Shown piece after piece: positions 18,395 through 38,307 of a DNA stretch of 60,382 bases. Position numbers and translations under genes: made by a program. The notes below the pieces were generated by a model. That model was not told the origin of the DNA. It did no database searches and was given only the letters and a program-made list of their open reading frames with translations. Within the stretch, counting starts at the first letter, position 1, and each line of letters starts with the position of its first letter. The stretch covers positions 1 to 60,382 of the forward strand of contig NZ_JAFMST010000017.1 of NCBI RefSeq assembly GCF_017916275.1, read 5' to 3'. This stretch comes from Rubellimicrobium arenae. Lineage in GTDB: Bacteria > Pseudomonadota > Alphaproteobacteria > Rhodobacterales > Rhodobacteraceae.

Positions 18395-18754
18395 TCAGGG
18401 CCGCAGGCAGATGTTCGAGCGGGTGAGGAACCGCCTTTCCCGCCCGTTGTCGAGCGAGAACATCCCCCCGCGCCCCGGCACCACGTCGATGACCAGGTCG
18501 GTGTGCTTCCAGGCCTCGTATTGGCTTTCGGAGATGTAGAAGGGCATCCCCCCGATCTCGCCCATCTGCACGTCGCGGTCGCCGACGATGAAGTCGCCCA
18601 CCGGGTAGCACATGGGCGAGGAGCCGTCGCAGCAGCCCCCCGACTGGTGGAACAGCACCGGCCCGTGGTCGGCCACGATCTCGGCCAGGAGCTGCAGCGC
18701 CTCGGGCGTGGCGGTCACCTTGTCGAGCGGCGGGGCGGCGGTCATGTCGTTCAT
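18395..18754 (-). CDS. DUF779 family protein
   Basis: 119 residues, full length. VLFHQSGGCCDGSSPMCYPVGDF with its cysteine pair and later CLRP end is the DUF779 signature. The family is nearly always encoded next to AcoD/ExaC-type aldehyde dehydrogenases, as here. The conserved Cys residues suggest metal binding or a redox role; a cytoplasmic accessory of the dehydrogenase is the simplest reading. It follows the dehydrogenase by 74 nt, with a strong hairpin between them. Confidence 0.88.
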   Translation of the reverse strand: MNDMTAAPPLDKVTATPEALQLLAEIVADHGPVLFHQSGGCCDGSSPMCYPVGDFIVGDRDVQMGEIGGMPFYISESQYEAWKHTDLVIDVVPGRGGMFSLDNGRERRFLTRSNICLRP

Positions 18755-18776
18755 GGAGTGGTCCTTTCACGGGAAA

Positions 18777-18804
18777 GGGCGCGCGGGGATGGCCCCGCGC
18801 GCCC
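18777..18804 (-). terminator. Very strong intercistronic hairpin
   Basis: GGGCGCGCGGGG (18777-18788) and CCCCGCGCGCCC (18793-18804) pair perfectly over 12 bp with loop ATGG. It lies between the aldehyde dehydrogenase stop (18829) and the DUF779 start (18754). No T-run follows, so it may attenuate rather than end transcription, or stabilise the upstream mRNA. Confidence 0.55.
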
Positions 18805-18828
18805 GCGCCTTTCGGACTGTCCCCCGCC

Positions 18829-20346
<1,518 letters not shown>

Positions 20347-20416
20347 GATCTTCTCCCTGCGCCGCCTCCTCGCGGCCCTGGGGCATTCGTGCCACGCGGA
20401 CGGGCGAATTTCAGCC

Positions 20417-20431
20417 GCGACAAAGGTCTTA
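20417..20431 (-). promoter_or_regulatory. Candidate regulatory element upstream of aldehyde dehydrogenase
   Basis: On the minus strand the sequence is TAAGACCTTTGTCGC. It shares 13 of 15 bases with the element before the ABC permease at exactly the same distance from the start codon, and 12 of 15 with the element before the LuxR response regulator. It overlaps the end of the permease gene. Confidence 0.5.
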
Positions 20432-21193
20432 GGCGGTGCGCCAGCGCCGCGCGCGGAGCTCAACCGGTTGAAGCAGCACGTATTCCATGACCAGCATCAC
20501 CGCCACGAAGGCCGCCGAATAGGCCAGCACATGCGCCACGTCGAAGAGCTGGAAGTAGAGGTGGATCTGGAAGCCCACGCCATTGGGCCGACCCAGGAAC
20601 TCCACCACCAGCACCAGCTTCCAGATGATGGCGAGGCCGTTGCGCGCGCTCGCGGCCAGGTAAGGGGCCAGCTGGGGCAGCATGACGTGCCGGAGCCGCG
20701 CCCAGGGCGACAGGCGGTAGACCCGCGCCATCTCGGCGATCCGGGGATCGAGGGCGCGCGCGCCCTCTCGCATGGTGACGACCACCATCGCCGTCTTGTT
20801 GAAGGCCACCGCGCCGACGGCCGAAAGCTCGTTCAGGCCGAACCAGACATAGGCCAGCACGATCACGACCAGCGCCGGCAGGTTCAGGGCGATCACGACC
20901 CAGGGGTCCGCCCAGCGGTCGAACCGGGGATGCAGGCCCAGCAGGAGCCCCAGGACCGAGCCCGCCGCCATCGCGATCCCGAAGGACCAGCCGACCCGGC
21001 CCAGGGTGGCCAGCACATGCCGCCCGAGATCGCCGGCCGCGGCTTCGGCCCAAAGGACCTCGGCCACGCGCCAGGGCGTCGGCAGCCGCACCGGATCGTC
21101 CGCCAGCACCGAGATGCCGGCCCAAAGGAGCGCCATCGCCGCCAGCGACACCGCGAGGGCCGCCCGGTCCACCTGCAGGCCCTTCTGCGCCAT
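20429..21193 (-). CDS. ABC transporter permease, TauC/SsuC type
   Basis: 254 residues, six predicted helices. The loop [46 protein letters not shown] carries the EAA motif of nitrate/sulfonate/taurine-type permeases. Its partners, an ATPase (30385-31071) and a periplasmic binding protein (31088-32059), are encoded 10 kb away at the other side of the island, so the transporter is split. The stop lies 82 nt before the aldehyde dehydrogenase start. Substrate unknown; the location suggests a compound needed for alcohol oxidation. Confidence 0.87.
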
Positions 21194-21263
21194 GCCACGA
21201 TCCTCCCCTGCCGGCCGAGCCTGCGTCCCGCCGCCGCCCCGGTCAACCGGGGGCCGCCGCAAC

Positions 21264-21314: not shown

Positions 21315-23384
21315 ATGGCCGCTGTTCTCCGCCTTCTTGCCCTCCTGCTCCTCGCGACGGCGGCGCGGGCCGAGGTGCTGGACCGCGCGGCGCTGGCCGG
21401 CTTCGTCCGCCCGCCGATGTCCATTGGCGACCCCGTGAACGACAGGGGCGTCTGGGAGCTCCTCAATTCCGGGGGCGCGCTCGCGGGCTATGTCTTCGAG
21501 ACCGAGCCCATGGCCCCGATCCCCGGCTTTTCCGGCGCGCCGATCAACCTGTTCGTGGCGCTGGACCTCGAAGGGCGCTTCATCGACGTCAAGCTCATCT
21601 CCCACAACGAGCCGATCTTCGTGTCGGGCCTGGGCGAGGCGCCGTTCCGCGCCTTCCTGGAGCAGTATCGCGGCCTGTCGATCTCCCAGCCCATGGTGGT
21701 CGGAACCCCCTACGGCGACGCGGGGGCGGGATCGGCGCTCGTGTACCTCGACGGGGTGACCAAGGCGACGGCCTCGGTCCGCATCGCCCATGAATCGCTG
21801 CTGGCCGCCACGCGCGAGGTCGCGCGGGAGAAGATGAAGGGCATCGCCAGCGCCCCGCCCGCCGCGCCCGACCCCGCGCACGAGGAAGCGCTGGCCTGGG
21901 CCGACCTCGTGGACCAGGGCATCGCCACGCGAAAGCTGGTCACGAACGCGCAGATCGACGGGATGTTCGCGGGCACGATCTGGGCCGCCGACGACCCCGA
22001 GGCGCGGGCCGATCCCGACGGGCCTTATCTCGACCTTTGGATCGTCGATCTCGGGCCGCCGTCGATCCGCGCGGCGGTGCTGGGCGAGGCGACGGCCGGA
22101 AAGCTCGACCGTTTGCTGGAGATCTCGCCCAACGAGGAGCCGATCCTCGTGATCGACGCGGGCCGCCACGGCCTCGTGTCGCCCGACTTCGTGCGCAACA
22201 CCGCGCCCGACCGCCTGACCGCCTCGCAGGATGGCCTTCCCGTGGCGCTGCGCGACGCCGACATCGCGGTCGAGCTGCAGCCCGGCGTGCCGGAGGGCAT
22301 CGCGATGATCCTGCGGACCGACCGCCGCCTGGGCTTCGACCCGTCGCGCCCCTGGACCCTGGAGGTCGAGGCCGTGCGCGAGCATGGCTCCTTCCAGCCC
22401 GAGATCGGCCGCGTGCCCCTGACGGCCGAGCACGCCACGCCCGAGCGGTTCTTCCTCCGCGAGGGCGAGGTGCGGCAGCTCACCCCGTTCGAGGAGGCCG
22501 TGCGGAGCCGCGCCCCGGACCTCGCCCTGCTGGGCGTCCTGCTCGCGGGGCTGTTCGTCCTCCTGGGGCCGCTCATGCACAGGGTGGCGCGGCGCGGCTG
22601 GCTGACGCCCGTCCGGCTGACGGTCCTGGCCGCCGTCCTGGCCTTCGTCGGCTGGTGGGGCCAGGGGCAGCTGTCCATCGTCACCGTGCTGGGCGCGATC
22701 CGCACCGCCTGGGATGGCGGCGGCTTCGCCTTCCTCCTCTACGACCCCTTCGGGCTCCTGGTCTGGGGCGCGGCGATCGTCGGCCTCGTGCTCTGGGGGC
22801 GCGGGCTGTTCTGCGGCTGGCTTTGCCCCTTCGGCGCGCTGCAGGAGTTCGCGCACCATCTGGGCCGCCGCCTGCGCCTGCCGCAATGGGAGCCGCCCGC
22901 CGTCTGGGACCGCCGCCTCAAGGGCGTGAAATATGTGCTGCTGGCGGGCCTCGTCGCCACCGTCTTCGTCGCGCCCGACCGCGTGGACACCATGGCCGAG
23001 GTGGAGCCCTTCAAGACCGCCATCACCACCTTCTTCCTTCGCGACTGGCTCTTTGTGCTCTATGCCGTGGCGTGGCTCGTCTCCGGCACCGTCCTGTTCA
23101 AGGGCTTCTGCCGCTATGTATGCCCCCTGGGCGCGGTCATGGCCATCGGCGGCCTGCTGCGCGGGCGGGACTGGATCGCGCGGCGGGCGGAATGCGGCTC
23201 GCCGTGCCAGCTCTGCCGCGTGCGCTGCCGCTACGGGGCGATCGAGCCCACGGGCCGGATCGACTACTCGGAATGCTTCCAGTGCCTCGACTGCGTGCAG
23301 ATCCTCGACGATCCCCGGCAATGCGTGCCGCAGGTCCTTGCCGCACGCGGGCCGCGCACCGCCTCGCAACGGAGGGCCGCCTGA
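21315..23384 (+). CDS. NosR/NirI-like membrane flavin and iron-sulfur protein
   Basis: 689 residues. A signal peptide (MAAVLRLLALLLLATAARA) precedes a periplasmic FMN-binding domain; DGVTKATAS, near residue 150, is the D-x-x-T/S-x-A-T motif where ApbE attaches FMN to threonine. After about 400 residues come membrane helices with two CxxxCP motifs (FCGWLCPFGAL and FCRYVCPLGAV), then ferredoxin-like cysteines (CGSPCQLCRVRC and CFQCLDC). This is the NosR/NirI layout, which carries electrons across the membrane. The ApbE gene follows with a TGATG overlap. No nitrous oxide or nitrite reductase gene is present; here it probably serves the quinoprotein system. Confidence 0.85.
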   Translation: MAAVLRLLALLLLATAARAEVLDRAALAGFVRPPMSIGDPVNDRGVWELLNSGGALAGYVFETEPMAPIPGFSGAPINLFVALDLEGRFIDVKLISHNEPIFVSGLGEAPFRAFLEQYRGLSISQPMVVGTPYGDAGAGSALVYLDGVTKATASVRIAHESLLAATREVAREKMKGIASAPPAAPDPAHEEALAWADLVDQGIATRKLVTNAQIDGMFAGTIWAADDPEARADPDGPYLDLWIVDLGPPSIRAAVLGEATAGKLDRLLEISPNEEPILVIDAGRHGLVSPDFVRNTAPDRLTASQDGLPVALRDADIAVELQPGVPEGIAMILRTDRRLGFDPSRPWTLEVEAVREHGSFQPEIGRVPLTAEHATPERFFLREGEVRQLTPFEEAVRSRAPDLALLGVLLAGLFVLLGPLMHRVARRGWLTPVRLTVLAAVLAFVGWWGQGQLSIVTVLGAIRTAWDGGGFAFLLYDPFGLLVWGAAIVGLVLWGRGLFCGWLCPFGALQEFAHHLGRRLRLPQWEPPAVWDRRLKGVKYVLLAGLVATVFVAPDRVDTMAEVEPFKTAITTFFLRDWLFVLYAVAWLVSGTVLFKGFCRYVCPLGAVMAIGGLLRGRDWIARRAECGSPCQLCRVRCRYGAIEPTGRIDYSECFQCLDCVQILDDPRQCVPQVLAARGPRTASQRRAA

Positions 23385-24259
23385 TGCGCCGCCGCCGCTT
23401 CCTCCGGATCATGGCCGCGGCGCTGCTGGGGCCCGGGGCCGCGCTGGCCCGCGACCGGCGCCTGGCGCTGGGGGCCGAGGCGGAGCTCACGCTCTATGGC
23501 CCGCCGGCCCTGACGGCCCGCGCCCGCGACCGCGCCTGGGCCGAGATCGCACGGATCGAGTCGATCTTCAGCCTGTACGACCCGGCCTCGTCGCTGTCGC
23601 GGCTCAACGCGGCGGGCCGCCTCGACGCGCCCCCGCACGAGCTGCTGGAGGTGCTGGCCCTGTCGGACCGCCTGCACGCGGCCACCGGGGGGCTCTTCGA
23701 TCCGACGGTGCAGCCGCTCTGGCTCGCCCTCGCGCAGGGCGGGGACGCGGAGGAGGCACGGCGGCTCATCGGCTGGGAGGGGGTGCGGATCGGCCCCGAC
23801 GCGGTGAGGCTGGGCAAGGGCCAGGCCCTCACGCTCAACGGGATCACGCAGGGCTATGCCACCGACCGGGTCGCCCGCGTCCTGGCCGACGAGGGCCTGA
23901 CCCACGCCCTGGTCGACATCGGCGAGTTCCGCGCCCTGTCCGGTCCCTTCCGCCTGGGCGTGGAGGACCCGACCTGGGGGCGCCTGGGCCAGATCACGCT
24001 GGACGGCGCCGCCTGCGCGACCTCCAGCCCCGGGGCCATGCTGCTGCCCGGCGGGTCGGGGCACATCCTCGATCCCCGGGGCGGCGACCCCGTCTGGTCC
24101 ACAGTGACCGTCACGGCCCCCACCGCCGCGATGGCGGACGGCCTGGCCACCGCGCTCTGCCTCGCCGAGGCCGGAGCGGCGCGCGGCATCCTCGCGGCGC
24201 TTGGGCCGGGCCTCGGGGCCACCGCGATCACCCCCGGCGGCGACCTGCTGACGCTCTGA
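23384..24259 (+). CDS. apbE: FAD:protein FMN transferase
   Basis: 291 residues. RRRRFLRIMAAALLGPGAALA at the start looks like a Tat-type export signal, so it acts in the periplasm. ApbE motifs are present: FSLYDPASSLSRLN, GLFDPTVQPLW, LNGITQGYATDRVA, ALVDIGEFRAL and MADGLATALCL. It transfers FMN from FAD onto Thr of target proteins, using Mg. Its TGATG overlap with the NosR-like gene and the DGVTKAT site there make that protein its obvious substrate. Slightly shorter than most ApbE proteins because the C-terminus ends soon after the last motif. Confidence 0.92.
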   Translation: MRRRRFLRIMAAALLGPGAALARDRRLALGAEAELTLYGPPALTARARDRAWAEIARIESIFSLYDPASSLSRLNAAGRLDAPPHELLEVLALSDRLHAATGGLFDPTVQPLWLALAQGGDAEEARRLIGWEGVRIGPDAVRLGKGQALTLNGITQGYATDRVARVLADEGLTHALVDIGEFRALSGPFRLGVEDPTWGRLGQITLDGAACATSSPGAMLLPGGSGHILDPRGGDPVWSTVTVTAPTAAMADGLATALCLAEAGAARGILAALGPGLGATAITPGGDLLTL

Positions 24260-24267
24260 CGCAAAAG

Positions 24268-24334: not shown

Positions 24335-25237
24335 TCACCTCTCGGGCGGCTCGAAGGTGAGCCCGAGATCCCCGAACAGCGCCGGGATCCGCCCATCGGC
24401 AAGCCCCGCGGCGATGGCGTCGTCCACGGCATAGCCCAGGTCGCGGTGCGACATGTGGACCGCCAGACCCACGGTCCAGTCCCCGACGGCCAGGCCGGGC
24501 AGCGGCGGCTCGTGGACGCGGACCCCCTCGCCCGCACCCCATTCGAGTTGGGCGCGCGGCCCCATTGCGGCGTTGACCTCGCCCCGCGACAGCGCGGCCA
24601 TCCCGGCGGCCATGGTCGGATAGCGGCGGATGTTGGCGTTGATCTGCCCGCCGGGAAAGGACGCGAGATAGAAATCCGAGATCGTGTCGTTCTGCACCCC
24701 CACGAGGTCGAAGCGGAAATAGGCGGGGGTCGGCGGATCGTCGGGATAGGCGTCCTCGCGGTAGGCGATGGCCAGCCGTTCCCGGTAGGCCTGCCCGGTG
24801 AAGACGACCTGCTCGACCCGGCAGGCGAAGACGCTGTCGTAGGGCACATGGAGCATCGCGTTCGCGACGTCGTTCTCGGCGCCGGCGGTGGGCTGGCCCT
24901 GCCAGACCTGGTAGCGCAGGTCGGCCTCCAGGGTCTCGCCCGAAAGGACGAAGCGGAAGCGCGGCTCGACGCCCAGCGCCTCGGCCACGAGACGCCCGAG
25001 GGCGATGTCGATGCCCTGCGGCTGCCCGCCCTCCTCCCAGGAATAGGGCGGCAGGTTGGCGTAGACGGCGAACTCGATCCAGCCGCGCGCAACGATGGCG
25101 TCGAGATCCTGGCCCACGAAGTCCCGGTCGGGGTTCTGGATGCGCCCGCCGGGCACGACGCCCTCGCAGCGGGCCAGGGCCGCCCGGGGCAGTCCCGCCG
25201 CCCCGGCCAGGCCCCAAAGGACGTCACGCCGCCGCAT
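24335..25237 (-). CDS. MoxJ/XoxJ-like periplasmic binding protein linked to quinoprotein dehydrogenase
   Basis: 300 residues with a short signal (MRRRDVLWGLAGAAGLPRAALA). The solute-binding family 3 pattern is seen in FAVYANLPPYSWEEGGQPQGIDIALGRLVAEALG, a recurrent start of quinoprotein dehydrogenase-associated binding proteins. Such proteins (MoxJ, XoxJ) help assemble or activate methanol and lanthanide-type alcohol dehydrogenases rather than import amino acids. It starts 2 nt after the cytochrome gene stop, in one minus-strand operon. Its direct role is inferred from homologues. Confidence 0.82.
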   Translation of the reverse strand: MRRRDVLWGLAGAAGLPRAALARCEGVVPGGRIQNPDRDFVGQDLDAIVARGWIEFAVYANLPPYSWEEGGQPQGIDIALGRLVAEALGVEPRFRFVLSGETLEADLRYQVWQGQPTAGAENDVANAMLHVPYDSVFACRVEQVVFTGQAYRERLAIAYREDAYPDDPPTPAYFRFDLVGVQNDTISDFYLASFPGGQINANIRRYPTMAAGMAALSRGEVNAAMGPRAQLEWGAGEGVRVHEPPLPGLAVGDWTVGLAVHMSHRDLGYAVDDAIAAGLADGRIPALFGDLGLTFEPPER

Positions 25238-25239: not shown

Positions 25240-25929
25240 CTAGTGCGCGACGGACAGCGACACGGAGATGAGCTCGGCCGCCTCGTGGAACCGCGCGGGG
25301 CTCCCGTCGATGAGCCGGGCCGCGCGCGCGGCGGCGCTGTCCGCGACCGGGGCGCCCGACAGCGTCTCGAAGCCCGCGTTGATCTCCATGAGCTCGGCCT
25401 TGATCGCGTCGATGTCCGCGCCCGCCGGGTCCTCGGCGTAGCCGGCCAGCTTGTCGCGCATCTGGGTCAGCGTGGGGGCGGCGTCGGCCACCTGCTGGTC
25501 ATCGGGGCGGGTCTCGATGTAGGAGCGGATCGCCCAGGCGGCCTTCTGGCCCAGGATCTCGCCGAAGGCCGGCATCTTGGTGATGCCGTTCTGGGTCATG
25601 CCGTGCTGGAAGCGTTCGGCGAACCATTCGTCGCCGTATTCCTCGGCCTCCAGGAACCGCAGGTCCGGCGCGAGCCCCCCCGAGATCGCGCCCAGCCCGT
25701 GGCAGCGCGCGCAGTTCTGGTTGAAGCCGGAATCGCCGATCTCGATCGCCTTCTGGAACACCTCGGGATCCATGCTGCGGTAGGGGTTCTCGGTCAGCCA
25801 CTCCTCGCCCACATCGGGCAGGGCGTCGGTGTTGACGGGCTGCGGGGCGACGTCGCCATGGGCGAGCGCGATGCCGGCGATGACGATCAGGCCGGCCGAC
25901 AACGGCCAGCGGGCGCGGGATGCGGGCAT
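25240..25929 (-). CDS. Cytochrome c550, PedF-like
   Basis: 229 residues. A leader peptide is followed by HGDVAPQPVNTDALPDVGEEW and NPYR, then the haem motif NCARCHG and the axial Met in KMPAFGE; this matches the PedF family of cytochrome c550 that accepts electrons from PQQ alcohol dehydrogenases. About 75 residues follow the normal end (QQVADAAPTLTQMRDKLAGY onward), a helical tail absent from the short PedF proteins I know. AGGAGG precedes ATG 25929. Periplasmic. It is the first gene of the operon with the MoxJ-like protein. Confidence 0.87.
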   Translation of the reverse strand: MPASRARWPLSAGLIVIAGIALAHGDVAPQPVNTDALPDVGEEWLTENPYRSMDPEVFQKAIEIGDSGFNQNCARCHGLGAISGGLAPDLRFLEAEEYGDEWFAERFQHGMTQNGITKMPAFGEILGQKAAWAIRSYIETRPDDQQVADAAPTLTQMRDKLAGYAEDPAGADIDAIKAELMEINAGFETLSGAPVADSAAARAARLIDGSPARFHEAAELISVSLSVAH

Positions 25930-26002
25930 GTGATTCCTCCTGGGGGCGCCTCTTGCGGGACGCGTCTGGGGAAAGGGTGTCAGAGCCCCTCCGCCCCCGC
26001 CA

Positions 26003-26017
26003 TTCGACCTTGGTGGC
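26003..26017 (+). promoter_or_regulatory. Candidate regulatory element upstream of the PedA-like gene
   Basis: TTCGACCTTGGTGGC matches 13 of 15 bases of the element before the response regulator (34089-34103) in the same orientation. Its end lies 84 nt before the plus-strand start at 26102, in the region that also drives the cytochrome operon on the minus strand. Confidence 0.5.
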
Positions 26018-26036
26018 AACGGAGCCGCCAGGGGCT

Positions 26037-29848: not shown

Positions 29849-29908
29849 GCGCCCCCGGCCATGGCGGCCCCGCCCTGGCCTCGCAGCACCGATCCGGGAG
29901 ACACCGAC

Positions 29909-30445
29909 ATGATCCGCCGCGCCGCCGTCCTGCTCCTTCTCCTGGCCGGGCCCGCCCTGGCCGAGGGCGATGAGCACGGCACCACGAACCCCGAGGAGAT
30001 GACCCTGGACCGCATGGTCGAGAACGCCCGCAACGGCCAGGTGGACATGACCACCTGCGCCTCGGGCTACCTGATGACCAAATCCGGCCAGCACGCCATC
30101 GCGCGCGAAACCTTCGAAGCCTGCGCCGAGGCCGGCTACACCGGCGCGATGACCTGGATGAGCTACATGGAGGACAACGGCTTCGGGGGCGACAGCAATC
30201 CCGACGCCTCCACCGAGTGGAACCGCCGGGCCGCCGAGGCGGGCGATCCCATCGGCCTGTTCAACCACGGCCTGGACCTGCTGCGCGGGCACGGCACGGC
30301 CCTGGACGAGGAGCGCGGGCGGGCGCTGGTGGACCGGGCCGCCGCCGCCGGGGTCGAGGACGCGCGGACGCTCGTGGAGTCGGGCTATGACCTCGACGTG
30401 GTGACGCCGGACGCGGACAACTGGAAGTACGCGCCCCTGTTCTGA
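29909..30445 (+). CDS. Sel1-repeat secreted protein
   Basis: 178 residues, signal MIRRAAVLLLLLAGPALA. Two or three Sel1-like units are visible: ARETFEACAEAGYTGAMTWMSYM, DASTEWNRRAAEAGDPIGLFNHGLDLL and ARALVDRAAAAGVEDARTLVE-type helices. Such repeats mediate protein-protein contacts. It follows the PedC-like gene by 60 nt, so it may belong to the operon. Its 3' end overlaps the convergent ATPase gene by 61 nt. It may be a periplasmic scaffold for the dehydrogenase system. Confidence 0.78.
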   Translation: MIRRAAVLLLLLAGPALAEGDEHGTTNPEEMTLDRMVENARNGQVDMTTCASGYLMTKSGQHAIARETFEACAEAGYTGAMTWMSYMEDNGFGGDSNPDASTEWNRRAAEAGDPIGLFNHGLDLLRGHGTALDEERGRALVDRAAAAGVEDARTLVESGYDLDVVTPDADNWKYAPLF

Positions 30446-31071
30446 CGCTCCTCGACGATGACGGCCGGACGGCCGCCCAGCCGCAGGATCCGCGTGGCCA
30501 GCGCCTCGGCCTCGCGCGGGTCGTGCGTGACAAGGAGCGTGGCCGTCCGGTGCCGCGCCCGCAACTGCGCGAACAGCGTCATCATCTCGCGCACGCGCGG
30601 CTCGTCGAGCGACACGAAGGGCTCGTCCATGAGCAGGAGGTCGGGCCGGCAGGCAAAGGCCCGGGCCAGCGCCAGGCGGCGCTGCTGCCCGAGCGAGACC
30701 TGCGAGGGGTAAAGCCCGCCCATCCCCTCCAGCCCCACCTCCGCCATCGCCGCGTCCGCCTCGTCGGCGGTGATGCCGGCCGTCACCGTCAGGTTCTGCG
30801 ACAGCGTCCGCCAGGGCAGCAGGGTGGGCTCCTGGAACACCACGGCAAGCCGGCCCCGGACCCGCACCGATCCCGCCCGCCGCCGGTCGAGTCCCGCGAT
30901 GACCCGCAGGAGGGAGGTCTTGCCCACCCCGGAGGGACCGGTCAGGGCCACCGTCTCGCCCTGCAGGACGGTCAGGCGCACCGGCCCCAGCACCTCGGCC
31001 CCGCCAAAGGCGAGACCGGCCAGGTCGAGATCGAGGACGACCGGCGCCTCGGGCTCCCCCCTTCGCGCCAT
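30385..31071 (-). CDS. ABC transporter ATP-binding protein, TauB/SsuB type
   Basis: 228 residues. Walker A is GPSGVGKTS, the Q-loop VVFQEPTLLPWRTL, the signature SLGQQRRLALARA and Walker B LLLMDEPFVSLD; the H-loop is VTHDPREA. Matches nitrate/sulfonate/taurine importers. The partner binding protein ends 16 nt upstream, and the permease lies 9 kb to the left. The start may also be GTG at 31080, a few codons earlier. The C-terminus overlaps the Sel1 gene on the other strand. Confidence 0.87.
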   Translation of the reverse strand: MARRGEPEAPVVLDLDLAGLAFGGAEVLGPVRLTVLQGETVALTGPSGVGKTSLLRVIAGLDRRRAGSVRVRGRLAVVFQEPTLLPWRTLSQNLTVTAGITADEADAAMAEVGLEGMGGLYPSQVSLGQQRRLALARAFACRPDLLLMDEPFVSLDEPRVREMMTLFAQLRARHRTATLLVTHDPREAEALATRILRLGGRPAVIVEERQNRGAYFQLSASGVTTSRS

Positions 31072-31087
31072 CGCGAGCACCGCGGCC

Positions 31088-32059
31088 CTACCCGCCCGTG
31101 CCCACGAAGACGCCCTCCGGCAGCGTCGTGGCGGTGCCCACGAGCTCCTCGCCGCCCAGCTCGGCCATGAGCCGCAGCATCCGGTCGGCGGCCTCCTCGT
31201 CCACGGGGCCTTCGGCGGGGGTGCCGGCCAGGAAGCCGTCGCGCAGGGCGGCGAACTCGGCATCCGAGCCGGCGTTCATCATCGGGCGGATCCGCTCCCA
31301 GGCGGCCATGTCGGTCGCGAGGAGCGCCTTGGCCTCGTGCGAGGCGGCGGCCAGTTCCCCCGTGAGCTCGGGATGCGCCTCGAGCATCTCCCCGTGCAGG
31401 ACATAGCCCAGGAGCGGCGTGTCGGGATCGAGCCCGAGCGCCGTGGCGGCGTCCTCGACCGAGATCAGCTCGCGCATCCCGGCGGCCTCCATCTTGGCCT
31501 GGAAGTGCCAGAAGTTGATCGCCCCATCGAGGTCGCCCGACAGCGCCGTCTCGTAGATCAGGGGGGGCGCGCCGAAGACCTGCTCGGTGTCGGCGGCCAG
31601 GTCCATGCCGTATTCCTGCTGGGCGTAGGCGCGCAGGATCAGCCAGCTCTTGTCCACCGGCCCGCCCGCGATGCCGATCTTGCCGCCCTCGAGGTCCCTG
31701 AGGCTCTGGGCCGGGCTGTCGGCCGCGACCATGAGGCCGCCGACCGCCCTGGAATAGGGCAGGAACACGAGGTCCATGCCCGCCGCCCTCTGCCGGGCGA
31801 CCCAAAGCCAGTCGGACACGATCACGTCCACCTCGCCGGCCAGGAACGCGGTCTGCGCGGCCGGCGCGCCGGCCAGTTCCTGGACCTGCAGGTCGAAGCC
31901 GTTGGCGACGTCGAAGCCGTTGTGCTCGATGGTGTCGAGCTCCCAGAGCACGGTGCCCGAGGCCTGCACCCCCGCCTTCAGAACCGGCTCCTCGGCCCGA
32001 GCCGGCGCGGACAGGCAAAGGACAGCAAGCGCGCCGGCGGCGGCGTGGCGGATGGACAT
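31088..32059 (-). CDS. ABC substrate-binding protein, NMT1/TauA-like
   Basis: 323 residues, signal MSIRHAAAGALAVLCLSAPARA. NGFDLQVQELAGAPAAQTAFLAGEVDVIVSDWLWVARQRAAG is the two-lobe pattern of NMT1/TauA-type periplasmic binding proteins; GGKIGIAGGPVDKSWLILRAYA and GDLDGAINFWHFQAKM are also typical. It is transcribed divergently from the alcohol dehydrogenase. The ligand is unknown; such proteins near PQQ enzymes may deliver a cofactor precursor, an alcohol-derived acid or a metal carrier. Confidence 0.85.
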   Translation of the reverse strand: MSIRHAAAGALAVLCLSAPARAEEPVLKAGVQASGTVLWELDTIEHNGFDVANGFDLQVQELAGAPAAQTAFLAGEVDVIVSDWLWVARQRAAGMDLVFLPYSRAVGGLMVAADSPAQSLRDLEGGKIGIAGGPVDKSWLILRAYAQQEYGMDLAADTEQVFGAPPLIYETALSGDLDGAINFWHFQAKMEAAGMRELISVEDAATALGLDPDTPLLGYVLHGEMLEAHPELTGELAAASHEAKALLATDMAAWERIRPMMNAGSDAEFAALRDGFLAGTPAEGPVDEEAADRMLRLMAELGGEELVGTATTLPEGVFVGTGG

Positions 32060-32113: not shown

Positions 32114-32156
32114 TACGACCAAAGCCGCACCCGCGGAACCTTTGTTTACGACCAAA
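32114..32156. promoter_or_regulatory. Divergent promoter with 33-bp-spaced direct repeats and the island motif
   Basis: TACGACCAAA occurs at 32114-32123 and again at 32147-32156, exactly 33 bp apart (about three helical turns), in the region between the binding protein (minus) and the alcohol dehydrogenase (plus). Between them ACCTTTGT (32138-32145) repeats the island motif in plus orientation. They are the best candidates for regulator binding at this divergent promoter. Confidence 0.5.
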
Positions 32157-32257
32157 CGCGAATACCGCGCCGCAAGGCCCCGGCCCGATACTTCGGTCCG
32201 GGGCCGGCCCGCGCAGGGGCGCAGGACAAGGCCAAGACGACAAACGGGAGGAAGCTC

Positions 32258-34024
32258 ATGAGACGTTTGATGCTGGCCGCGACGGTCAGCCTGCTGGCCG
32301 TCGGCGCCGCACAGGCGCAGGTCACGGCCGACGACATCGCCAACGACGCGACCACCACGGGCGATGTCGTCACCAACGGCATGGGCCAGGCGCTCCAGCG
32401 CTACAGCCCCCTCGAGCTGCTCAACAAGGAGAACGTGGAGCACCTCGTCCCCGCCTGGGCCTTCTCGCTGGGCGGCGAGAAGCAGCGCGGGCAGGAAACC
32501 CAGCCCCTGGTCTATGACGGGATCATGTACGTCACGGGGTCCTATTCGCGGCTTTACGCCGTCGACGTGAAGACCGGCCAGGAGCTCTGGCAATACGACG
32601 CCCGCCTGCCCGAGGGCATCCTGCCCTGCTGCGACGTGGTGAACCGGGGCGCCGCCATCTACGGCGACATGGTGATCTTCGGCACGCTCGACGCCCGGCT
32701 GGTGGCGCTCGACCGCAAGACGGGCGACGTGATCTGGAACAAGGAGATCGCGGACTACAAGGCGGGCTACAGCTACACGGCCGCGCCGCTCATCGTGAAC
32801 GGCCTCGTGATCACCGGCAACTCGGGCGGCGAGTTCGGGATCGTGGGCGAGGTGCAGGCCCGCGACGTCAACACCGGCGAGCTCGTCTGGACGCGGCCCA
32901 CCATCGAAGGGAACATGGGCACCCTGAACGGCGAGGACAGCACCATGACCGGGGTGCTGAACGCCACCTGGCCCGGCGACATGTGGAAGACCGGCGGCGG
33001 CGCCCCCTGGCTGGGCGGCTCCTACGACGCCGAGACCAACACCCTGATCTTCGGCGCGGGCAACCCGGCCCCCTGGAACAGCCACCTGCGCAACGCCGGC
33101 ACGCCGGTCGAGGGCAACACCGGCGACAACCTGTACGCCGCCTCGCGGATCGGGATCGACCCCGCCACCGGCGAGATCAAGTGGCACTTCCAGACCACCC
33201 CGCGCGAGGGATGGGACTTCGACGGCGTGAACGAGGTCGTGGCCTACACCGACCGGGAGGGCAACGGCCGGCTCGCCACCGCCGACCGCAACGGCTTCTT
33301 CTACATCCTGAACCGCGAGGACGGGAAGTTCATCCGCGCCACGCCCTTCGTGCAGAACATCACCTGGGCCAGCGGCATCGGCGAGGATGGCCGCCCCATC
33401 TACAACGAGGACAACCGCCCCGGCGACCCGACCACCGCCGCCGAGGGCGAGCGGGGCGAGACGGTCTTCGCGGTCCCCTCCTTCCTGGGCGGCAAGAACT
33501 GGATGCCCATGGCCTTCAGCCAGCGGACCGGCAACTTCTACGTGCCCTCCAACGAATGGGGCATGGACATCTGGAACGAGCCCGTCACCTACCGCGAGGG
33601 CGCGGCCTACCTGGGGTCGGGCTTCACCATCAAGCCGATCTTCGAGGACCATATCGGCGCGCTCAAGGCCATCGACCCCGACACCGGCGACATCAAGTGG
33701 GAATACCACAATCCCGCGCCCCTTTGGGGCGGCGTGATGACCACCGCGGGCGGGCTCGTGTTCCTGGGCACCCCCGAAGGCGAGTTCAAGGCGCTGGACG
33801 ATGAAACGGGCGAGGTCCTGTGGTCCTTCCAGACCGGGTCGGGCATCGTCGGCCAGCCCATCACCTGGGAGCAGGACGGTGAGCAGTTCGTGACCGTCGT
33901 GTCGGGCTGGGGCGGCGCCGTTCCGCTCTGGGGCGGCGAGGTCGCGAACCGCGTCAACTACCTCAACCAGGGCGGCATGGTCTGGACGTTCCGGCTGCCC
34001 AAGGAGTTCGCCTCGGCCGGCTGA
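32258..34024 (+). CDS. PQQ-dependent alcohol dehydrogenase, lanthanide type (ExaF/PedH/XoxF-like)
   Basis: 588 residues with a clean signal (cleavage after AQA, residue 20). It is an eight-bladed quinoprotein: vicinal Cys124-Cys125 (LPCCDVV), metal ligands Glu192 (GGEFG), Asn269 (GAGNPAPWN) and catalytic Asp320. GWDFDGVNE adds Asp322 two positions after the catalytic Asp, the residue that marks lanthanide-dependent enzymes (calcium types have Ala or Ser there). It would oxidise ethanol or other primary alcohols in the periplasm and feed cytochrome c550. GGGAGGAAG precedes the ATG. Ethanol-type and methanol-type enzymes cannot be separated surely by eye; the PedF-type cytochrome favours the ethanol group. 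Confidence 0.9.
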
Positions 34025-34161: not shown

Positions 34162-34845
34162 ATGCAGGCCAGCCCTCTCGCCCCCCAGCTCCGCACCTTC
34201 GGGACGGCGCTGATCGTGGACGACCACCCGCTCTTCTGCGACGCCCTGTCGATGACGTTGCGCGCCGTGGCCGGCATCGCCCGGACCGAGACGGCCGACA
34301 GCCTGGCCGCCGCGCTGGACCGGCTCGAGACGGACGGGATCGACCTCGTCGTGCTCGACCTCAACCTCCCGGACGTGAGCGGGCTGGACGGGCTGCTGCG
34401 GCTGCGGGCGGCCGCGAACGGCCTGCCGGTCGTGGTCGTGTCCTCGGTGGCCGACCACAGGATGATCGCGGCGACGATCCGCGCGGGGGCGGCGGGCTTC
34501 GTCCCCAAGCACAGCCAGCGCGACGTCTTCCGCCGGGCCCTGGCCCAGATCGCCGCCGGCGGCGTCTTCGTGCCGGAAGGCGTTGTGATCGAGGACGAGG
34601 TGCCCGCCACCGGACCCGAGGAAGCGATCCGCCGCCTGTCCCAGTTGACCCGCCAGCAGGCCCGCATCCTCGAGCTGATCTGCGAGGGCAAGCTCAACAA
34701 GCAGATCGCCTTCGACCTGTCGATCGCCGACGCGACCGTGAAGGCCCATGTCACGGCGATCATGCGCAAGCTGGGCGTCCAGACGCGGACGCAGGCGGTG
34801 CTCCTCGCGCGGGAGGTGAGCTTCTCGACGATCTTGCACGACTGA
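34162..34845 (+). CDS. LuxR-family response regulator (ErbR/AgmR/FlhR-like)
   Basis: 227 residues. The receiver domain has acidic LIVDDHP, phosphoacceptor Asp66 (VVLDLNLPD) and Lys in GFVPKHS; the DNA-binding domain is LSQLTRQQARILELICEGKLNKQIAFDLSIADATVKAHVTAIMRKLGV. This type of regulator (AgmR/ErbR in Pseudomonas, FlhR in Paracoccus) controls PQQ alcohol dehydrogenase genes. It stands next to a FIST sensor and a hybrid kinase, its likely partners. It carries the shared motif in its own promoter. Confidence 0.88.
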   Translation: MQASPLAPQLRTFGTALIVDDHPLFCDALSMTLRAVAGIARTETADSLAAALDRLETDGIDLVVLDLNLPDVSGLDGLLRLRAAANGLPVVVVSSVADHRMIAATIRAGAAGFVPKHSQRDVFRRALAQIAAGGVFVPEGVVIEDEVPATGPEEAIRRLSQLTRQQARILELICEGKLNKQIAFDLSIADATVKAHVTAIMRKLGVQTRTQAVLLAREVSFSTILHD

Positions 34846-34899: not shown

Positions 34900-34913
34900 T
34901 GGGGAGGAGCATC

Positions 34914-36083
34914 ATGGAGAGGAGCGAGGCGCTGAGCCTCGCGCCGCGGACCGGCATGCCACGGGTCCGTTCGGCGCAGGTCCCGCATGACGAACCCGAC
35001 GCCCTGGGCCAGCTGGCGCAGGGCCTGGGCGGCGACCTGGCCCTGGTCGCCCTGTTCGTGACGCCCTTGGCCGATTTCGCCGCCGTCATGGCCGCCGCCT
35101 GCCGGCTTTACCCGGACGCCGTGGTCGTGGGCTGCACCACCGCCGGAGAGATCGGCGTCCAGGGCTATGCCGAGGGCGTGATCGTCGGGCTGGGCCTGCC
35201 CCGCGCCAACTTCGCGGTGACGCCCATCCTGGTGCCCGACCTCGACGCCCTCGACGGAGAGCAGCTCGTGGGCGACATGATCCGGTCCCGCACGAGCCTC
35301 ATGGCCCAGGAGCCGCGCTGGCGGAACGAGTTCGCCTTCCTCCTCGTGGACGGGCTGTCGGTGCGCGAGGACGAGCTGGTCTCGGCCCTGGCGGTCGGGC
35401 TGGGCCCGATGCCGCTCTTTGGAGGATCGGCCGGGGACGGGAGCCACTTCCGGGAAACCTTCGTGGCCCTGGGGGCCGAGCCGCGCCGCCACGCGGCCGT
35501 GCTTTGCATGGTCCGCACCGATTGCGAGGTGCAGGTCTTCAGCCTCGATCACCTCAAGCCGTCGCAGACGCGCATGGTCGTGACCGAGGCCGACCCCGCG
35601 CGCCGCATCGTCCACCAGATCAACGCCGAGCCCGCCGCGCGGGAATACGCCCGCGTGCTGGGCAAGGACCCCGAGCAGCTGTCGCCCATGACCTTCGCGG
35701 CGCATCCCGTGGTCGTGCGCTTTGGCGGCACCCACCATGTCCGGGCGATCCAGCGGGTGCTCGACAACGGCGACCTCGTGTTCTTCTCGGCCATCGACGA
35801 GGGGCTGGTCCTGACGCTCGCCGAGGCCGAAGACATGGCCCAGCATCTCGACCGCGAGCTCAAGCGGATCCGCCGCGGCCGCGAGCCCGAGGCGATCTGG
35901 GCCTGCGACTGCATCCTGCGCCGCGTCGCCGCCCAGGAAACCCAGCAGACCCGCGCCCTGTCGGCCATCCTGTCCAAGAACCGCGTCGTGGGCTTTTCGA
36001 CCTACGGCGAGCAGATCAACGGGATGCACGTCAACCAGACCATGACCGGCGTCGCCATCTTCCCTCCCCCCGATCCCTCGTGA
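34914..36083 (+). CDS. nosP: FIST-domain sensor protein, NosP-like
   Basis: 389 residues. The FIST_N domain spans about residues 30-215 (ALFVTPLADFAAVMAAACRLYPDAVVVGCTTAGEIGVQGYAEGVIVGLGL, and PLFGGSAGDGSHF). FIST_C follows (PAAREYARVLG, DCILRRVAA and VVGFSTYGEQINGMHVNQTMTGVAIF). In Pseudomonas the homologue NosP (PA1975) is a haem protein that senses nitric oxide and is encoded beside the kinase NahK (PA1976). Here the next gene is a NahK-like kinase only 8 nt away. Haem binding cannot be read from sequence; small-ligand sensing is the family role. Confidence 0.8.
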   Translation: MERSEALSLAPRTGMPRVRSAQVPHDEPDALGQLAQGLGGDLALVALFVTPLADFAAVMAAACRLYPDAVVVGCTTAGEIGVQGYAEGVIVGLGLPRANFAVTPILVPDLDALDGEQLVGDMIRSRTSLMAQEPRWRNEFAFLLVDGLSVREDELVSALAVGLGPMPLFGGSAGDGSHFRETFVALGAEPRRHAAVLCMVRTDCEVQVFSLDHLKPSQTRMVVTEADPARRIVHQINAEPAAREYARVLGKDPEQLSPMTFAAHPVVVRFGGTHHVRAIQRVLDNGDLVFFSAIDEGLVLTLAEAEDMAQHLDRELKRIRRGREPEAIWACDCILRRVAAQETQQTRALSAILSKNRVVGFSTYGEQINGMHVNQTMTGVAIFPPPDPS

Positions 36084-36090
36084 CGCGATC

Positions 36091-38307
36091 ATGCCAGCCA
36101 TCGCCCTGATCGACCCGACCGAACCCCTGGAACGGCAGAACGACAAGCTGCTGCGGATCTGCGATGCCCTGATGAAGCGGGTCGAGCAGATCGACGACGA
36201 CCGGGGCGTGGCCTACAACCAGTTCCAGCGCGCCGTCCTGCTCGAGGATCAGGTGCGCGAACGGACGCGCGACCTCGAGCACGCGCTCGACCTCCTCAAC
36301 GAATCGAACGCCCGCCTCGCCGCCGCCATACGCGAGACCGAACGGGCGCGCTCGGACCTGGCCGGGGCCATCGAGACGATCCAGGAAGGCTTCGCGCTCT
36401 TCGACCCCGACGACCGGCTCGTGCTCTGCAACTCGCGCTTCGCGATGCACCTGCCCGACATCCGCCACGCCCTCGAGCCCGGCCTGACCTTCGAGGGCTA
36501 CGTGGCGCTGGTCAGCCGCAGCGCCCATCTCGACCTGCCGCCCGGAATGACCCGCGAGGAATGGCTGGTGAGCCGGATGGCCCGCCACGGCGAGACCCAC
36601 GTCGTCTTCAACGTCCGCATGGCGGGCGACCGCTGGGTGCAGGTCAGCGAGCACCGGATGACGCGGGGCCAGACGGTGGTCATGCAGACCGACGTGTCCG
36701 ACATCATCCGATCCGAGCGCGAGGAGCACGGCAAGCTGCTCGACGACCAGGCGCGGCTGATCCGGGCGACCCTGGAGCACATCGACCAGGGCGTCTGCAT
36801 CGTCGACCCGCGGGGGCGGCTCGCCGGGTTCAACCGGCGCATGGCGACGCTGCTGGGCCTTCCGCTCACCTATCTGCGGCCGGGGCTGGACGTGGACCTG
36901 GTCCTCAACCGGCTCCGGTCCGACGCGAGCTTCGGGCCCGGCCCCTCGCCCGACGACGTGCTGGCCTGGGTCCGGCAGGATGGCGGCCGCAAGCCGCTCC
37001 GCTTCGAGCTGCGACGCGGCGAAGGCAAGTGGATCGACGTCTTCGCGGCCGAGATGCCCGACCGCGGCTTCGTGATGAGCCTCACCGACGTCAGCGCCGA
37101 ACGTGAATCCGCGCGGGCGCTCCACGAGGCCAACGAGATGCTGGAAGCCCGCGTGGCCTCGCGCACGCTGGAGCTGGAGGACGCCCTCGCCGTGGCCGAG
37201 CGGGCCAACGCCTCGCGCACGCGGTTCGTCGCCGCGGCGAGCCACGACCTCCTCCAGCCGCTGTCGGCGGCCAAGCTCTACCTGTCCTCGATATCGGACG
37301 AGATGTCCGACCCGTATCACCGCGAGGTGGTCAACAAGGCCCAGAACGCCCTGGCCTCGGTGCAGGACATCATCGAGGCGCTGCTGGACATCTCCAAGCT
37401 GGAGTCCGGGCGCGCCGCCGCCGACATCCGGACCGTGGACCTGGGCACCCTCCTTGCGCAGCTTCGCGACGAGTTCGCGCCGGCGGCGGCGCTCAAGGGG
37501 CTGAAGCTGACCGTGCGGCCCTCGGCGCTGCGGATCACCACCGATCCCACCTACATCAAGCGGATCCTCCAGAACCTGATGGCCAACGCGATCCGCTACA
37601 CCGAGTCCGGGCGCGTCCTTGTCGGCGCGCGGCGGTCGGGGGGGATGGTGCGGATCGGGGTCCACGACACCGGCCCCGGCATCCCCGAGGCCGAGCAGGA
37701 GAACATCTTCAAGGAATTCCACCGCCTGGGCCGCCGCGCCTCGGCCAGCGAGGGCCTGGGCCTGGGCCTGGCCATCGTGGACCGGGCCTGCGCGATGCTG
37801 GGGCATCCGCTGACGCTCGCCTCGGTGCCGGGACGGGGCACGGCCTTCACCGTCGCGGTCCCGCTGTCCGAACGGAGCGGCCACATCCCGATCGACCCGC
37901 GCCGGGCCCTGTCGGGGGACTGGCGGCATGATGGGCTATCGGTGCTGGTGATCGAGAACGACCTCGACATGCGGCGGGCCCTGTCGCTCCTGCTGCAAAG
38001 CTGGGGCGTGCGGGTGCTGGGCGCGGGCTCGGCCGAGGAGGCGCTGCGGCGGCTGGGTCCCTCGGGGCTGCGGCCCGACGCCCTTCTGGTGGACTTCCAG
38101 CTCGATGACGGGGAGACCGGGGTGCGGGCCATCCAGCGGCTGCGGCGCAAGCTGGGGCGCCTGCCCGCCCGGATCGTGACCGCGAACCGCAGGCCCGAGG
38201 TCGCCGCCGAGGCGCGGCGGATCGGGGTCGAGATGCTCTACAAGCCGCTCGACCCCTTGATGCTCCACCTGTTCCTGGGCTCCCTCGCCCTGGGCCGGAT
38301 GGGCTGA
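36091..38307 (+). CDS. nahK: Hybrid sensor histidine kinase, NahK/ErcS'-like
   Basis: 738 residues, no transmembrane segment. A coiled-coil start (about 45-95) leads to two PAS domains (about 96-205 and 222-335). HisKA carries His385 in AAASHDLLQPLSAAKLYLSS, a NahK/ErcS'-type motif. HATPase is present (NLMANAIRYTESG, HDTGPGIP, GLGLGLAIVDRAC). The C-terminal receiver has LVIENDLDMRRAL, phosphoacceptor Asp668 in LLVDFQLDDG and Lys in MLYKPLDP. It begins 7 nt after the FIST gene, so NosP-like control of its activity is likely. Its 3' end overlaps the convergent SRPBCC gene by 70 nt. Confidence 0.88.
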   Translation: MPAIALIDPTEPLERQNDKLLRICDALMKRVEQIDDDRGVAYNQFQRAVLLEDQVRERTRDLEHALDLLNESNARLAAAIRETERARSDLAGAIETIQEGFALFDPDDRLVLCNSRFAMHLPDIRHALEPGLTFEGYVALVSRSAHLDLPPGMTREEWLVSRMARHGETHVVFNVRMAGDRWVQVSEHRMTRGQTVVMQTDVSDIIRSEREEHGKLLDDQARLIRATLEHIDQGVCIVDPRGRLAGFNRRMATLLGLPLTYLRPGLDVDLVLNRLRSDASFGPGPSPDDVLAWVRQDGGRKPLRFELRRGEGKWIDVFAAEMPDRGFVMSLTDVSAERESARALHEANEMLEARVASRTLELEDALAVAERANASRTRFVAAASHDLLQPLSAAKLYLSSISDEMSDPYHREVVNKAQNALASVQDIIEALLDISKLESGRAAADIRTVDLGTLLAQLRDEFAPAAALKGLKLTVRPSALRITTDPTYIKRILQNLMANAIRYTESGRVLVGARRSGGMVRIGVHDTGPGIPEAEQENIFKEFHRLGRRASASEGLGLGLAIVDRACAMLGHPLTLASVPGRGTAFTVAVPLSERSGHIPIDPRRALSGDWRHDGLSVLVIENDLDMRRALSLLLQSWGVRVLGAGSAEEALRRLGPSGLRPDALLVDFQLDDGETGVRAIQRLRRKLGRLPARIVTANRRPEVAAEARRIGVEMLYKPLDPLMLHLFLGSLALGRMG

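What the first reader, a model, noticed from the sequence alone, without database searches (positions are those of the whole stretch)
18395..38307. A complete lanthanide-type alcohol oxidation island
The alcohol dehydrogenase has D320-F-D322, the extra Asp that marks lanthanide-dependent quinoproteins, and all other metal ligands (E192, N269). Around it are a PedF-like cytochrome, a PedA1A2BC-like ABC set (the set needed for rare-earth-dependent growth in Pseudomonas putida), a MoxJ/XoxJ-like protein, a Sel1 protein, an ExaC-type aldehyde dehydrogenase with DUF779, and two-component control. No calcium-type partner enzyme is seen, so the organism may depend on lanthanides for this route.
Basis: partly seen in the sequence, partly recalled or inferred. 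Interest (0 to 1): 0.72.

Follow-up and report, generated by a model that had tools for sequence, protein, structure and literature searches.

The report
Rare-earth alcohol oxidation island with flavoprotein
A bacterium carries a gene island for oxidising alcohol with an enzyme that looks built to use rare-earth metals, together with a membrane flavin protein that is inherited with this enzyme in related genera and whose job in the pathway is not known.

Summary
The dehydrogenase (32258-34024 +) has E192, N269 and D320-F-D322, is closest in the PDB to lanthanide-dependent PedH, and sits with a PedF cytochrome, a PedA1A2BC set, ExaC and DUF779. The genome's only other alcohol quinoprotein over the family cut-off is also lanthanide-type (XoxF); no calcium-type partner was found. 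Corrections: the "MoxJ/XoxJ-like" protein matches no MoxJ/XoxJ model; the Sel1 match is sub-threshold. Over 295 genomes of its family, nearly all of different genera, this protein and the dehydrogenase are both present in 56, one alone in 3 and 4, neither in 232; 55 of the 56 also have PedF. So here the flavoprotein does not replace the cytochrome, as proposed in print for an exaA cluster (PMC8238504). In the few sampled islands without it a SoxYZ/SoxH pair sits beside the dehydrogenase (small sample). A known kind of island with a partly published extra; direction of electron flow unknown.

The parts
18395..18754 (-). DUF779 protein
   Evidence: PF05610 150.5 bits, cut-off 25
18829..20463 (-). 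ExaC-type acetaldehyde dehydrogenase (model match starts at residue 52, so the true start is probably near 20310)
   Evidence: NF050026 955 bits, cut-off 900
20429..21262 (-). ABC permease, inferred third part of the PqqT-type importer
   Evidence: BPD_transp_1; nearly all-or-none with PqqT and ATPase genes in 50 relatives
21315..23384 (+). NosR-like membrane protein: N-terminal part with an ApbE-type motif DGVTKAT (Thr152), TM segments, two CxxxCP motifs, C-terminal Cys-rich part
   Evidence: NF046105 NosR 436 bits, below its cut-off of 1000; Fer4_5; alignment; model and RnfG matches
23384..24259 (+). ApbE (FAD:protein FMN transferase); start ATG at 23384
   Evidence: PF02424 150.6 bits, cut-off 25.6; start read
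24335..25237 (-).
   Evidence: SBP_bac_3 28.3 bits, cut-off 26.4; 34% identical to the protein at the same place beside PedF in L137; no MoxJ/XoxJ model match
25240..26019 (-). cytochrome c550 PedF
   Evidence: TIGR04494 192 bits, cut-off 122
26102..27280 (+). PedA1-like substrate-binding protein
   Evidence: TIGR03863 483 bits, cut-off 414
27370..28344 (+). PedA2-like beta-propeller protein (start by inspection)
   Evidence: TIGR03866 513 bits, cut-off 287; start candidates
28341..29060 (+). PedB-like ABC ATPase
   Evidence: TIGR03864 343 bits, cut-off 302
29057..29848 (+). PedC-like ABC permease
   Evidence: TIGR03861 434 bits, cut-off 241
29861..30445 (+). small exported protein with sub-threshold Sel1 match
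   Evidence: PF08238 22.7 bits, cut-off 30.7; homologue in 36 of 50 relatives
30385..31083 (-). ABC ATPase of the PqqT-type importer (start approximate; ORF opens at 31263)
   Evidence: ABC_tran 94 bits; taurine/sulfonate/nitrate-type models below cut-off
31088..32059 (-). PqqT-like periplasmic binding protein
   Evidence: phmmer 218 bits, E 1e-63 to PDB 9b1u/9b1v; start ATG at 32059
32258..34024 (+). lanthanide-type PQQ alcohol dehydrogenase (PedH/ExaF type)
   Evidence: TIGR03075 760 bits; best PDB chains 6zcv, 6zcw at 830 and 823 bits; metal ligands
34162..34845 (+). LuxR-type response regulator, nearest model ErdR
   Evidence: NF041830 163 bits, below its cut-off of 390
34914..36083 (+). 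FIST-domain protein, nearest model NosP (nitric-oxide sensor)
   Evidence: PF08495, PF10442; NF041558 375 bits, below its cut-off of 450
36091..38307 (+). hybrid histidine kinase, nearest models NahK/ErcS' family
   Evidence: NF041832 374 bits, below its cut-off of 400

Best explanation
The island is a periplasmic lanthanide-type alcohol oxidation unit of the PedH/ExaF kind. Shown by sequence: the dehydrogenase with lanthanide-type ligands, PedF, PedA1A2BC, a PqqT-type importer in two pieces, ExaC, a NosP/NahK/ErdR-like control set, and a NosR-like protein with an ApbE. Inferred: PedA1A2BC brings in lanthanide; the PqqT set recaptures PQQ; the enzyme oxidises ethanol-type alcohols, PedF takes the electrons to a cytochrome oxidase, and ExaC oxidises the aldehyde. 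The NosR-like protein is flavinylated by its ApbE at Thr152 and links the quinone pool with the periplasmic quinoprotein. It works beside PedF, not in its place. I cannot tell the direction. I lean slightly to a second exit, in which reduced PQQ passes electrons through the flavin and iron-sulphur clusters to quinone (about 0.4), over a reductive maturation or repair role (about 0.3).
For: Family models and PDB match. Ligands invariant in 49 of 49. Co-occurrence over 295 genomes: 56 both, 3 dehydrogenase only, 4 NosR-like only, 232 neither; Fisher p 1e-51. 42 of 56 pairs lie within 30 kb, 41 of them on the same strand. 55 of 56 have PedF. Thr152 of the ApbE-type motif invariant in 45 of 45; the four best Foldseek matches of the model are RnfG, the flavinylated Rnf subunit. 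ApbE found beside it in 44 of 50 relatives.
Against: The motif is DGVTKAT where the published rule is D-x-x-[S/T]-G-A-[S/T]: the Gly is Lys, so flavinylation is not certain. Pfam finds no FMN-binding domain. The RnfG matches have E 0.002 to 0.009, none below 0.001, and the model is under 50 pLDDT at residues 131-150 around the motif. Five of nine genomes with the dehydrogenase in a class-wide sample of 385 lack the NosR-like protein, so it is not needed everywhere. In 14 of 56 genomes the two genes are on other contigs or at least 86 kb apart. Genomes share ancestry, so the p value overstates independence.
Confidence: 0.8

Rival explanations
1. The NosR-like flavoprotein replaces the cytochrome as electron acceptor of the alcohol dehydrogenase (flavin/cytochrome substitution, proposed in print for an exaA cluster).
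For: Meheust et al. 2021 (PMC8238504, section 17 and passages) found NapH-like flavinylation clusters with an ethanol oxidase in 172 genomes and proposed this.
Against: 55 of the 56 genomes with both genes also have PedF; the exception, G098, is 84% complete. In the window PedF lies in the same island.
Confidence: 0.07
2. The NosR-like protein with ApbE delivers electrons outward, from quinol to the periplasm, for maturation or repair of the quinoprotein (for example its vicinal disulfide Cys124-Cys125 or sulphur adducts of PQQ), doing a job that other islands give to the SoxYZ-like carrier and SoxH-like hydrolase.
For: The known homologue NosR is thought to donate electrons to a periplasmic enzyme (PMC12052999, passages). 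The Cys pair is invariant in 49 of 49. SoxYZ and SoxH genes sit directly beside the dehydrogenase in five islands without the NosR-like protein (G461, G638, G557, G344, and the calcium-type G002); SoxH over cut-off in none of the four class-sample genomes with it.
Against: Not exclusive: SoxYZ of the 200-208-bit class is found in 7 of 60 genomes with the NosR-like protein, next to it in G126 and G020. The window's genome has a SoxYZ-like carrier elsewhere (C15, 258 bits). Over the whole family SoxYZ is not depleted with the NosR-like protein: 14 of 60 against 28 of 235. The comparison group is 6 to 8 genomes, two of one genus; p goes from 0.0005 to 0.03 depending on the choice of rows and class.
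Confidence: 0.3
3. XoxF on another contig is the main ethanol enzyme and this island serves other alcohols or is minor.
For: A full XoxF set is present; in strain La 6 a xoxF5 mutant lost growth on methanol and ethanol (PMC5934484, passages).
Against: The island enzyme is far closer to PedH (830 bits) and ExaA (688) than to XoxF (326) in the PDB, and lies in an island with ExaC.
Confidence: 0.2
4. The enzyme is a calcium enzyme in spite of the second Asp.
For: Sequence alone cannot show the metal used.
Against: Ligands, PedH as the closest solved relative, and the linked PedA1A2BC set.
Confidence: 0.05

Closest known systems
ped cluster of Pseudomonas putida KT2440 (PedH, PedF, PedG, PedA1A2BC, PP_2663/PedS1/AgmR)
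   Same: Lanthanide-type dehydrogenase, PedF, PedG-like binding protein, four-gene ABC set, NosP-like plus NahK/ErcS'-like plus LuxR-type regulators (Table 1 seen as a passage of PMC12997753).
   Different: No calcium-type PedE here; no SoxYZ/SoxH pair between PedG and the dehydrogenase; a NosR-like/ApbE pair and a PqqT-type importer are added.
NapH-like flavinylated gene clusters with exaA (Meheust et al. 2021, PMC8238504)
   Same: FMN-type plus iron-sulphur membrane protein and ApbE linked to a quinoprotein alcohol dehydrogenase.
   Different: Here the dehydrogenase is lanthanide-type in 49 of 49 inspected, PedF is kept, and the association is near-obligate in one family. Whether their 172 genomes include these was not checked (supplement not readable here).
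NosR of nitrous oxide reduction
   Same: Whole-length homology (436 bits), iron-sulphur motifs, ApbE partner.
   Different: Below the NosR cut-off; 30-37% identical to the NosR group against 52-75% inside its own group in the family search; separate branch with support 1.0; TKAT in place of SGAT or SRAT; a separate NosR exists on another contig of this genome.
PqqT of Methylorubrum extorquens AM1 (PDB 9b1u, 9b1v)
   Same: Binding protein 218 bits; the Lys aligned to what I infer to be Lys142 is kept in 30 of 30 relatives.
   Different: Here the binding protein and ATPase lie 9 kb from the permease, with the island between them; PQQ binding not tested.

Membership tests
PedH/ExaF-type lanthanide alcohol dehydrogenase | TIGR03075 over cut-off | tested here: met
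   760 bits, cut-off 480
PedH/ExaF-type lanthanide alcohol dehydrogenase | Extra Asp two residues after the catalytic Asp, plus Glu and Asn ligands | tested here: met
   D320, D322, E192, N269; 49 of 49; aligned to PedH WDFDG and ExaA WDFSG
PedH/ExaF-type lanthanide alcohol dehydrogenase | Activity needs a lanthanide | not testable with these tools
   Needs enzyme or growth assay
PedA1A2BC lanthanide ABC set | All four gene families over cut-off and adjacent | tested here: met
   TIGR03863, TIGR03866, TIGR03864, TIGR03861
PedA1A2BC lanthanide ABC set | Lanthanide import | not testable with these tools
   Shown for P. putida in PMC6839425 (passages)
PedF | TIGR04494 over cut-off | tested here: met
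   192 bits, cut-off 122
MoxJ/XoxJ | TIGR03870 or TIGR03871 match | tested here: not met
   No such match at E 0.001; no BLASTP similarity to the genome's own XoxJ, which does match TIGR03871 at 293 bits
NosR | NosR equivalog cut-off | tested here: not met
   436 bits, cut-off 1000
NosR | ApbE-type flavinylation motif D-x-x-[S/T]-G-A-[S/T] | tested here: inconclusive
   DGVTKAT: six of seven positions fit, Gly is Lys; acceptor Thr invariant in 45 of 45
FMN-binding (RnfG-like) domain | Fold | tested here: inconclusive
   Top four Foldseek hits RnfG, probability 1.00, E 0.002-0.009; motif region low confidence; no Pfam FMN_bind match
PqqT-type PQQ importer | Homology to PqqT and presence of ATPase and permease | tested here: met
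   218 bits; pattern in 50 relatives 27 all three, 20 none, 3 partial
PqqT-type PQQ importer | PQQ binding and import | not testable with these tools
   Needs binding assay
ExaC | NF050026 over cut-off | tested here: met
   955 bits, cut-off 900
NosP / NahK / ErdR control set | Equivalog cut-offs | tested here: not met
   375/450, 374/400, 163/390; all three are best matches but below cut-off

The most novel reading that the evidence does not exclude
In this lineage the maturation or redox upkeep of the lanthanide quinoprotein has been taken over by a dedicated flavinylated NosR-like protein and its ApbE, in place of the SoxYZ/SoxH 'quinoprotein relay' that other islands carry beside the enzyme. 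It would be a new, obligate redox partner of lanthanide enzymes, powered from the quinone pool.
Probability: 0.22. Interest if true: 0.75.

Novelty: new variant of a known kind. Interest (0 to 1): 0.5.

Why it matters
Lanthanide-dependent alcohol oxidation has known parts for the enzyme, the cytochrome and metal import, but its maturation and the fate of its electrons are poorly known. A membrane flavoprotein that comes and goes with the lanthanide enzyme in one bacterial family, while the cytochrome is kept, points to a further redox step that one gene deletion could reveal. The split PqqT-type importer shows how island parts hidden on the other strand can be assigned by shared presence and absence. 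In the 295-genome sample only one of 59 genomes with a dehydrogenase of this kind (E at most 1e-150) had a calcium-type one among those inspected, so periplasmic ethanol-type oxidation in this family may be largely a rare-earth trait.

Tried and rejected
Rejected: NosR-like protein as a replacement for PedF (55 of 56 genomes keep PedF). Rejected: that it is simply NosR of nitrous oxide reduction. Of 62 genomes with only NosR-group matches, one (G002) has a dehydrogenase match and that is calcium-type. A link with denitrification was not supported: an additional NosR-group match in 19 of 60 genomes with the NosR-like protein against 62 of 235 without, p 0.42 (the 19 were picked by hand from the table, where at most 3 candidates a genome were scored). 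Rejected: sulfonate importer for the second ABC set, since its binding protein matches PqqT at 218 bits and the sulfonate model at 19.5. Rejected: strict exclusion between the NosR-like protein and SoxYZ/SoxH.

Led nowhere: the second structural aligner was not available; literature searches for NosR-like with PQQ, for pedH with Rhodobacteraceae and lanthanide, and for FMN-binding with 4Fe-4S, quinoprotein and lanthanide gave no paper; NosR with alcohol dehydrogenase and lanthanide gave two papers that I saw as listings only.

Limits of the counts: 50 of the 55 relatives with both genes were fetched (not fetched: G031, G098, G125, G133, G161), and many fetched stretches end inside the island, so the gene counts are lower bounds. 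G161, G133 and G198 have the NosR-like gene in pieces at contig ends or gaps and were counted as present.


Full report
Place. The window is one whole contig (C8) of a 4.55 Mb, 39-contig genome that is 99.6% complete. The best matches of the NosR-like protein among named genomes are Rubellimicrobium roseum (84%) and R. mesophilum (80%) (records of the own genome may be left out there), so the organism is probably a Rubellimicrobium or close kin; this is an inference.

The dehydrogenase. ORF 32108-34024 (+) opens upstream, but a signal-peptide-like start is at 32258. It scores 760 bits on TIGR03075. In the PDB its best chains are PedH, 6zcv and 6zcw (830 and 823 bits), then ExaA 1flg (688), then XoxF 4mae (326). 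The alignments put WDFDG against WDFDG of PedH and WDFSG of ExaA. Numbered from 32258, E192, N269, D320, D322 and the Cys124-Cys125 pair are each invariant in 49 of 49 sequences, the window and 48 relatives.

No calcium partner in the genome. TIGR03075 gives six matches in the genome, two over the cut-off: this one and C34:431220-432839, which reads WDYDG, is 36% identical to it and lies with TIGR03874, TIGR03871, TIGR03865, TIGR03863 and TIGR03866 genes, all over cut-off: a XoxF set. A third, weaker match is a membrane glucose-type dehydrogenase (TIGR03074, 1091 bits). PqqE is on C16 (568 bits, cut-off 381), and an ORF beside it reads as PqqB (by eye). In the family sample of 295 genomes, 59 had a match to the dehydrogenase at E up to 1e-150, one each (at most four candidates were scored per genome). 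Of those inspected, G002 alone reads WDFSG, calcium-type, at 53-56% identity.

The rest of the known island. PedF, PedA1, PedA2, PedB, PedC and ExaC pass their cut-offs, and DUF779 too. The binding protein at 24335-25237 matches no MoxJ/XoxJ model and has no BLASTP similarity to the genome's XoxJ, but is 34% identical to the protein at the same place beside PedF in an unrelated island, L137, and fits the published description of PedG (PMC12997753, passages). The Sel1 match is sub-threshold. The regulators are best matched by ErdR, NosP and NahK/ErcS' models, all below cut-off; P. putida has a NosP-like, a NahK-like (PedS1) and a LuxR-type regulator in its ped cluster (PMC12997753, passages), so this set is not special to the window.

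A PqqT-type importer in two pieces. The gene at 31088-32059 (-) matches PDB 9b1u/9b1v at 218 bits, E 1e-63; a passage of PMC12828617 names 9B1V as PqqT with PQQ and Gd, and PMC12124388 describes PqqT as a PQQ-binding protein of M. extorquens with Kd 50 nM (passage). Beside it is an ABC ATPase; the matching permease is 9 kb away at 20429-21262 (-). In 50 relatives for which I fetched the loci, the three genes were all found in 27, none in 20, and partly in 3, whose stretches are cut. Of the 27, they are contiguous in 4, on separate stretches in 6, and 8-17 kb apart in 17. That pattern assigns the far permease to this importer. One result against: the R. mesophilum locus has the binding protein and the ATPase but no permease in the 10 kb held upstream.

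The NosR-like protein and ApbE. The protein at 21315-23384 (+) matches the NosR model over its length at 436 bits, far below the cut-off of 1000; Pfam sees only Fer4_5. ApbE follows with overlapping stop and start. The motif is DGVTKAT; the published ApbE rule is D-x-x-[S/T]-G-A-[S/T] (PMC12052999, section 8), so six of seven positions fit. The acceptor Thr152 is invariant in 45 of 45, and the two CxxxCP motifs and the C-terminal Cys residues are conserved. Five NosR-group proteins of the family read SGAT or SRAT, and the tree puts them on a separate branch (support 1.0). An AlphaFold model (mean pLDDT 79.7, pTM 0.52, motif region under 50) has RnfG as its four best PDB matches (probability 1.00, E 0.002 to 0.009; no match at E 0.001 or below).

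Co-occurrence. Over 295 genomes of the family (294 genera) the NosR-like orthologue (52% identity or more to the window) is found in 60 and the dehydrogenase in 59; both in 56, dehydrogenase only in 3 (G147, 73% complete; G216, partial match; G002, calcium-type), NosR-like only in 4 (G020, G122, G191, G198; in the first three the gene lies near a contig end), neither in 232; Fisher p 1e-51. 42 of the 56 pairs are within 30 kb, 41 of these on the same strand. PedF is found in 55 of the 56. In a class-wide sample of 385 genomes the NosR-like protein (E up to 1e-110) is in 4 and the dehydrogenase (E up to 1e-180) in 9; all 4 have both, 5 have the dehydrogenase alone. Of the 80 named loci kept, 73 have ApbE, 55 PedF and 29 the dehydrogenase within the held flanks of at most 10 kb, many of them cut by contig ends; of the 29, 26 read W-D-[F/Y]-D-G and 3 could not be read. 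Distant members exist without a dehydrogenase in reach, such as the Methyloligella MAG L227 (42%).

What stands in its place. Where the dehydrogenase lacks the NosR-like protein, four fetched class-sample islands (G461, G638, G557, G344) and the calcium-type G002 carry a SoxYZ-like carrier and a SoxH-like hydrolase directly before the dehydrogenase, as P. putida does (PMC12997753, passages). SoxH model TIGR04558 is over cut-off in those 5 and in none of G000, G294, G321, G467 and G530 of the ten searched; G530 has neither. Against a simple swap: a SoxYZ carrier of the same score class is in 7 of 60 genomes with the NosR-like protein, next to it in G126 and G020; the window's genome has one on C15; and over the family any over-cut-off SoxYZ is in 14 of 60 against 28 of 235. 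The contrast of 7 of 60 with 5 of 6 gives p 0.0005; adding the two incomplete genomes G147 and G216 gives 0.003, and counting any SoxYZ gives 0.006 (against 5 of 6) or 0.03 (against 5 of 8). The 200-208-bit class was chosen after seeing the scores. I treat this as a lead.

Known work. Meheust et al. 2021 (PMC8238504: section 17 read, other passages seen) report NapH-like flavinylation clusters with an ethanol oxidase in 172 genomes and propose that the flavoprotein stands where a cytochrome stands elsewhere. So the association as such is in print. New here, as far as my ten searches went, are the tie to lanthanide-type enzymes, the retention of PedF, the near-obligate pairing in one family, and the contrast with SoxYZ/SoxH. 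I could not read that paper's supplement, so its 172 genomes may include some of these.

Mechanism. Shown: gene content, ligands, pairing. Inferred: metal use, PQQ recapture, alcohol range, flavinylation, electron direction. I lean slightly to an extra exit to quinone, because the pair tracks an oxidase and PedF is kept; the maturation reading rests on the SoxYZ/SoxH contrast and on NosR being an electron donor. Neither is shown.

Noticed in passing
L074:4785-8502: Between ApbE and the PedG-like gene this relative carries a molybdenum-hydroxylase set (CoxM-, CoxL-, CoxS-like, with a CoxG-like gene), read from the ORFs. Several other relatives have a gap of similar size at the same place.
   Followed up: partly
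L227:8686-13074: In a Methyloligella MAG a distant NosR-like/ApbE pair lies next to a YHS-domain-like gene and a small membrane protein gene, with no dehydrogenase in the held 22 kb.
   Followed up: partly
window 16122-18316 (-): Two HtrA/Deg-type protease genes flank a short LuxR-type regulator gene just beside the island; the second protease is divergent.
   Followed up: no
genome contig C1, 63996-66062: The same genome has a separate NosR-group protein with its own linked ApbE, so two ApbE/NosR-type pairs coexist.
   Followed up: partly
genome contig C15, 17589-19468: A quinoprotein-associated SoxYZ-like carrier (258 bits) and a sub-threshold SoxH-like hydrolase lie together, away from this island; whether they belong to XoxF was not tested.
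   Followed up: no
L150: Rubellimicrobium mesophilum has the PqqT-like protein and ATPase but no matching permease in the 10 kb held upstream of the NosR-like gene; R. roseum (L149) shows none of the three.
   Followed up: no
L166, L179, L187: Shinella, Neorhizobium and Allorhizobium (Rhizobiaceae) carry nearly the whole island with the NosR-like protein and the PqqT set at 64-66% identity, which may mean transfer between families.
   Followed up: no
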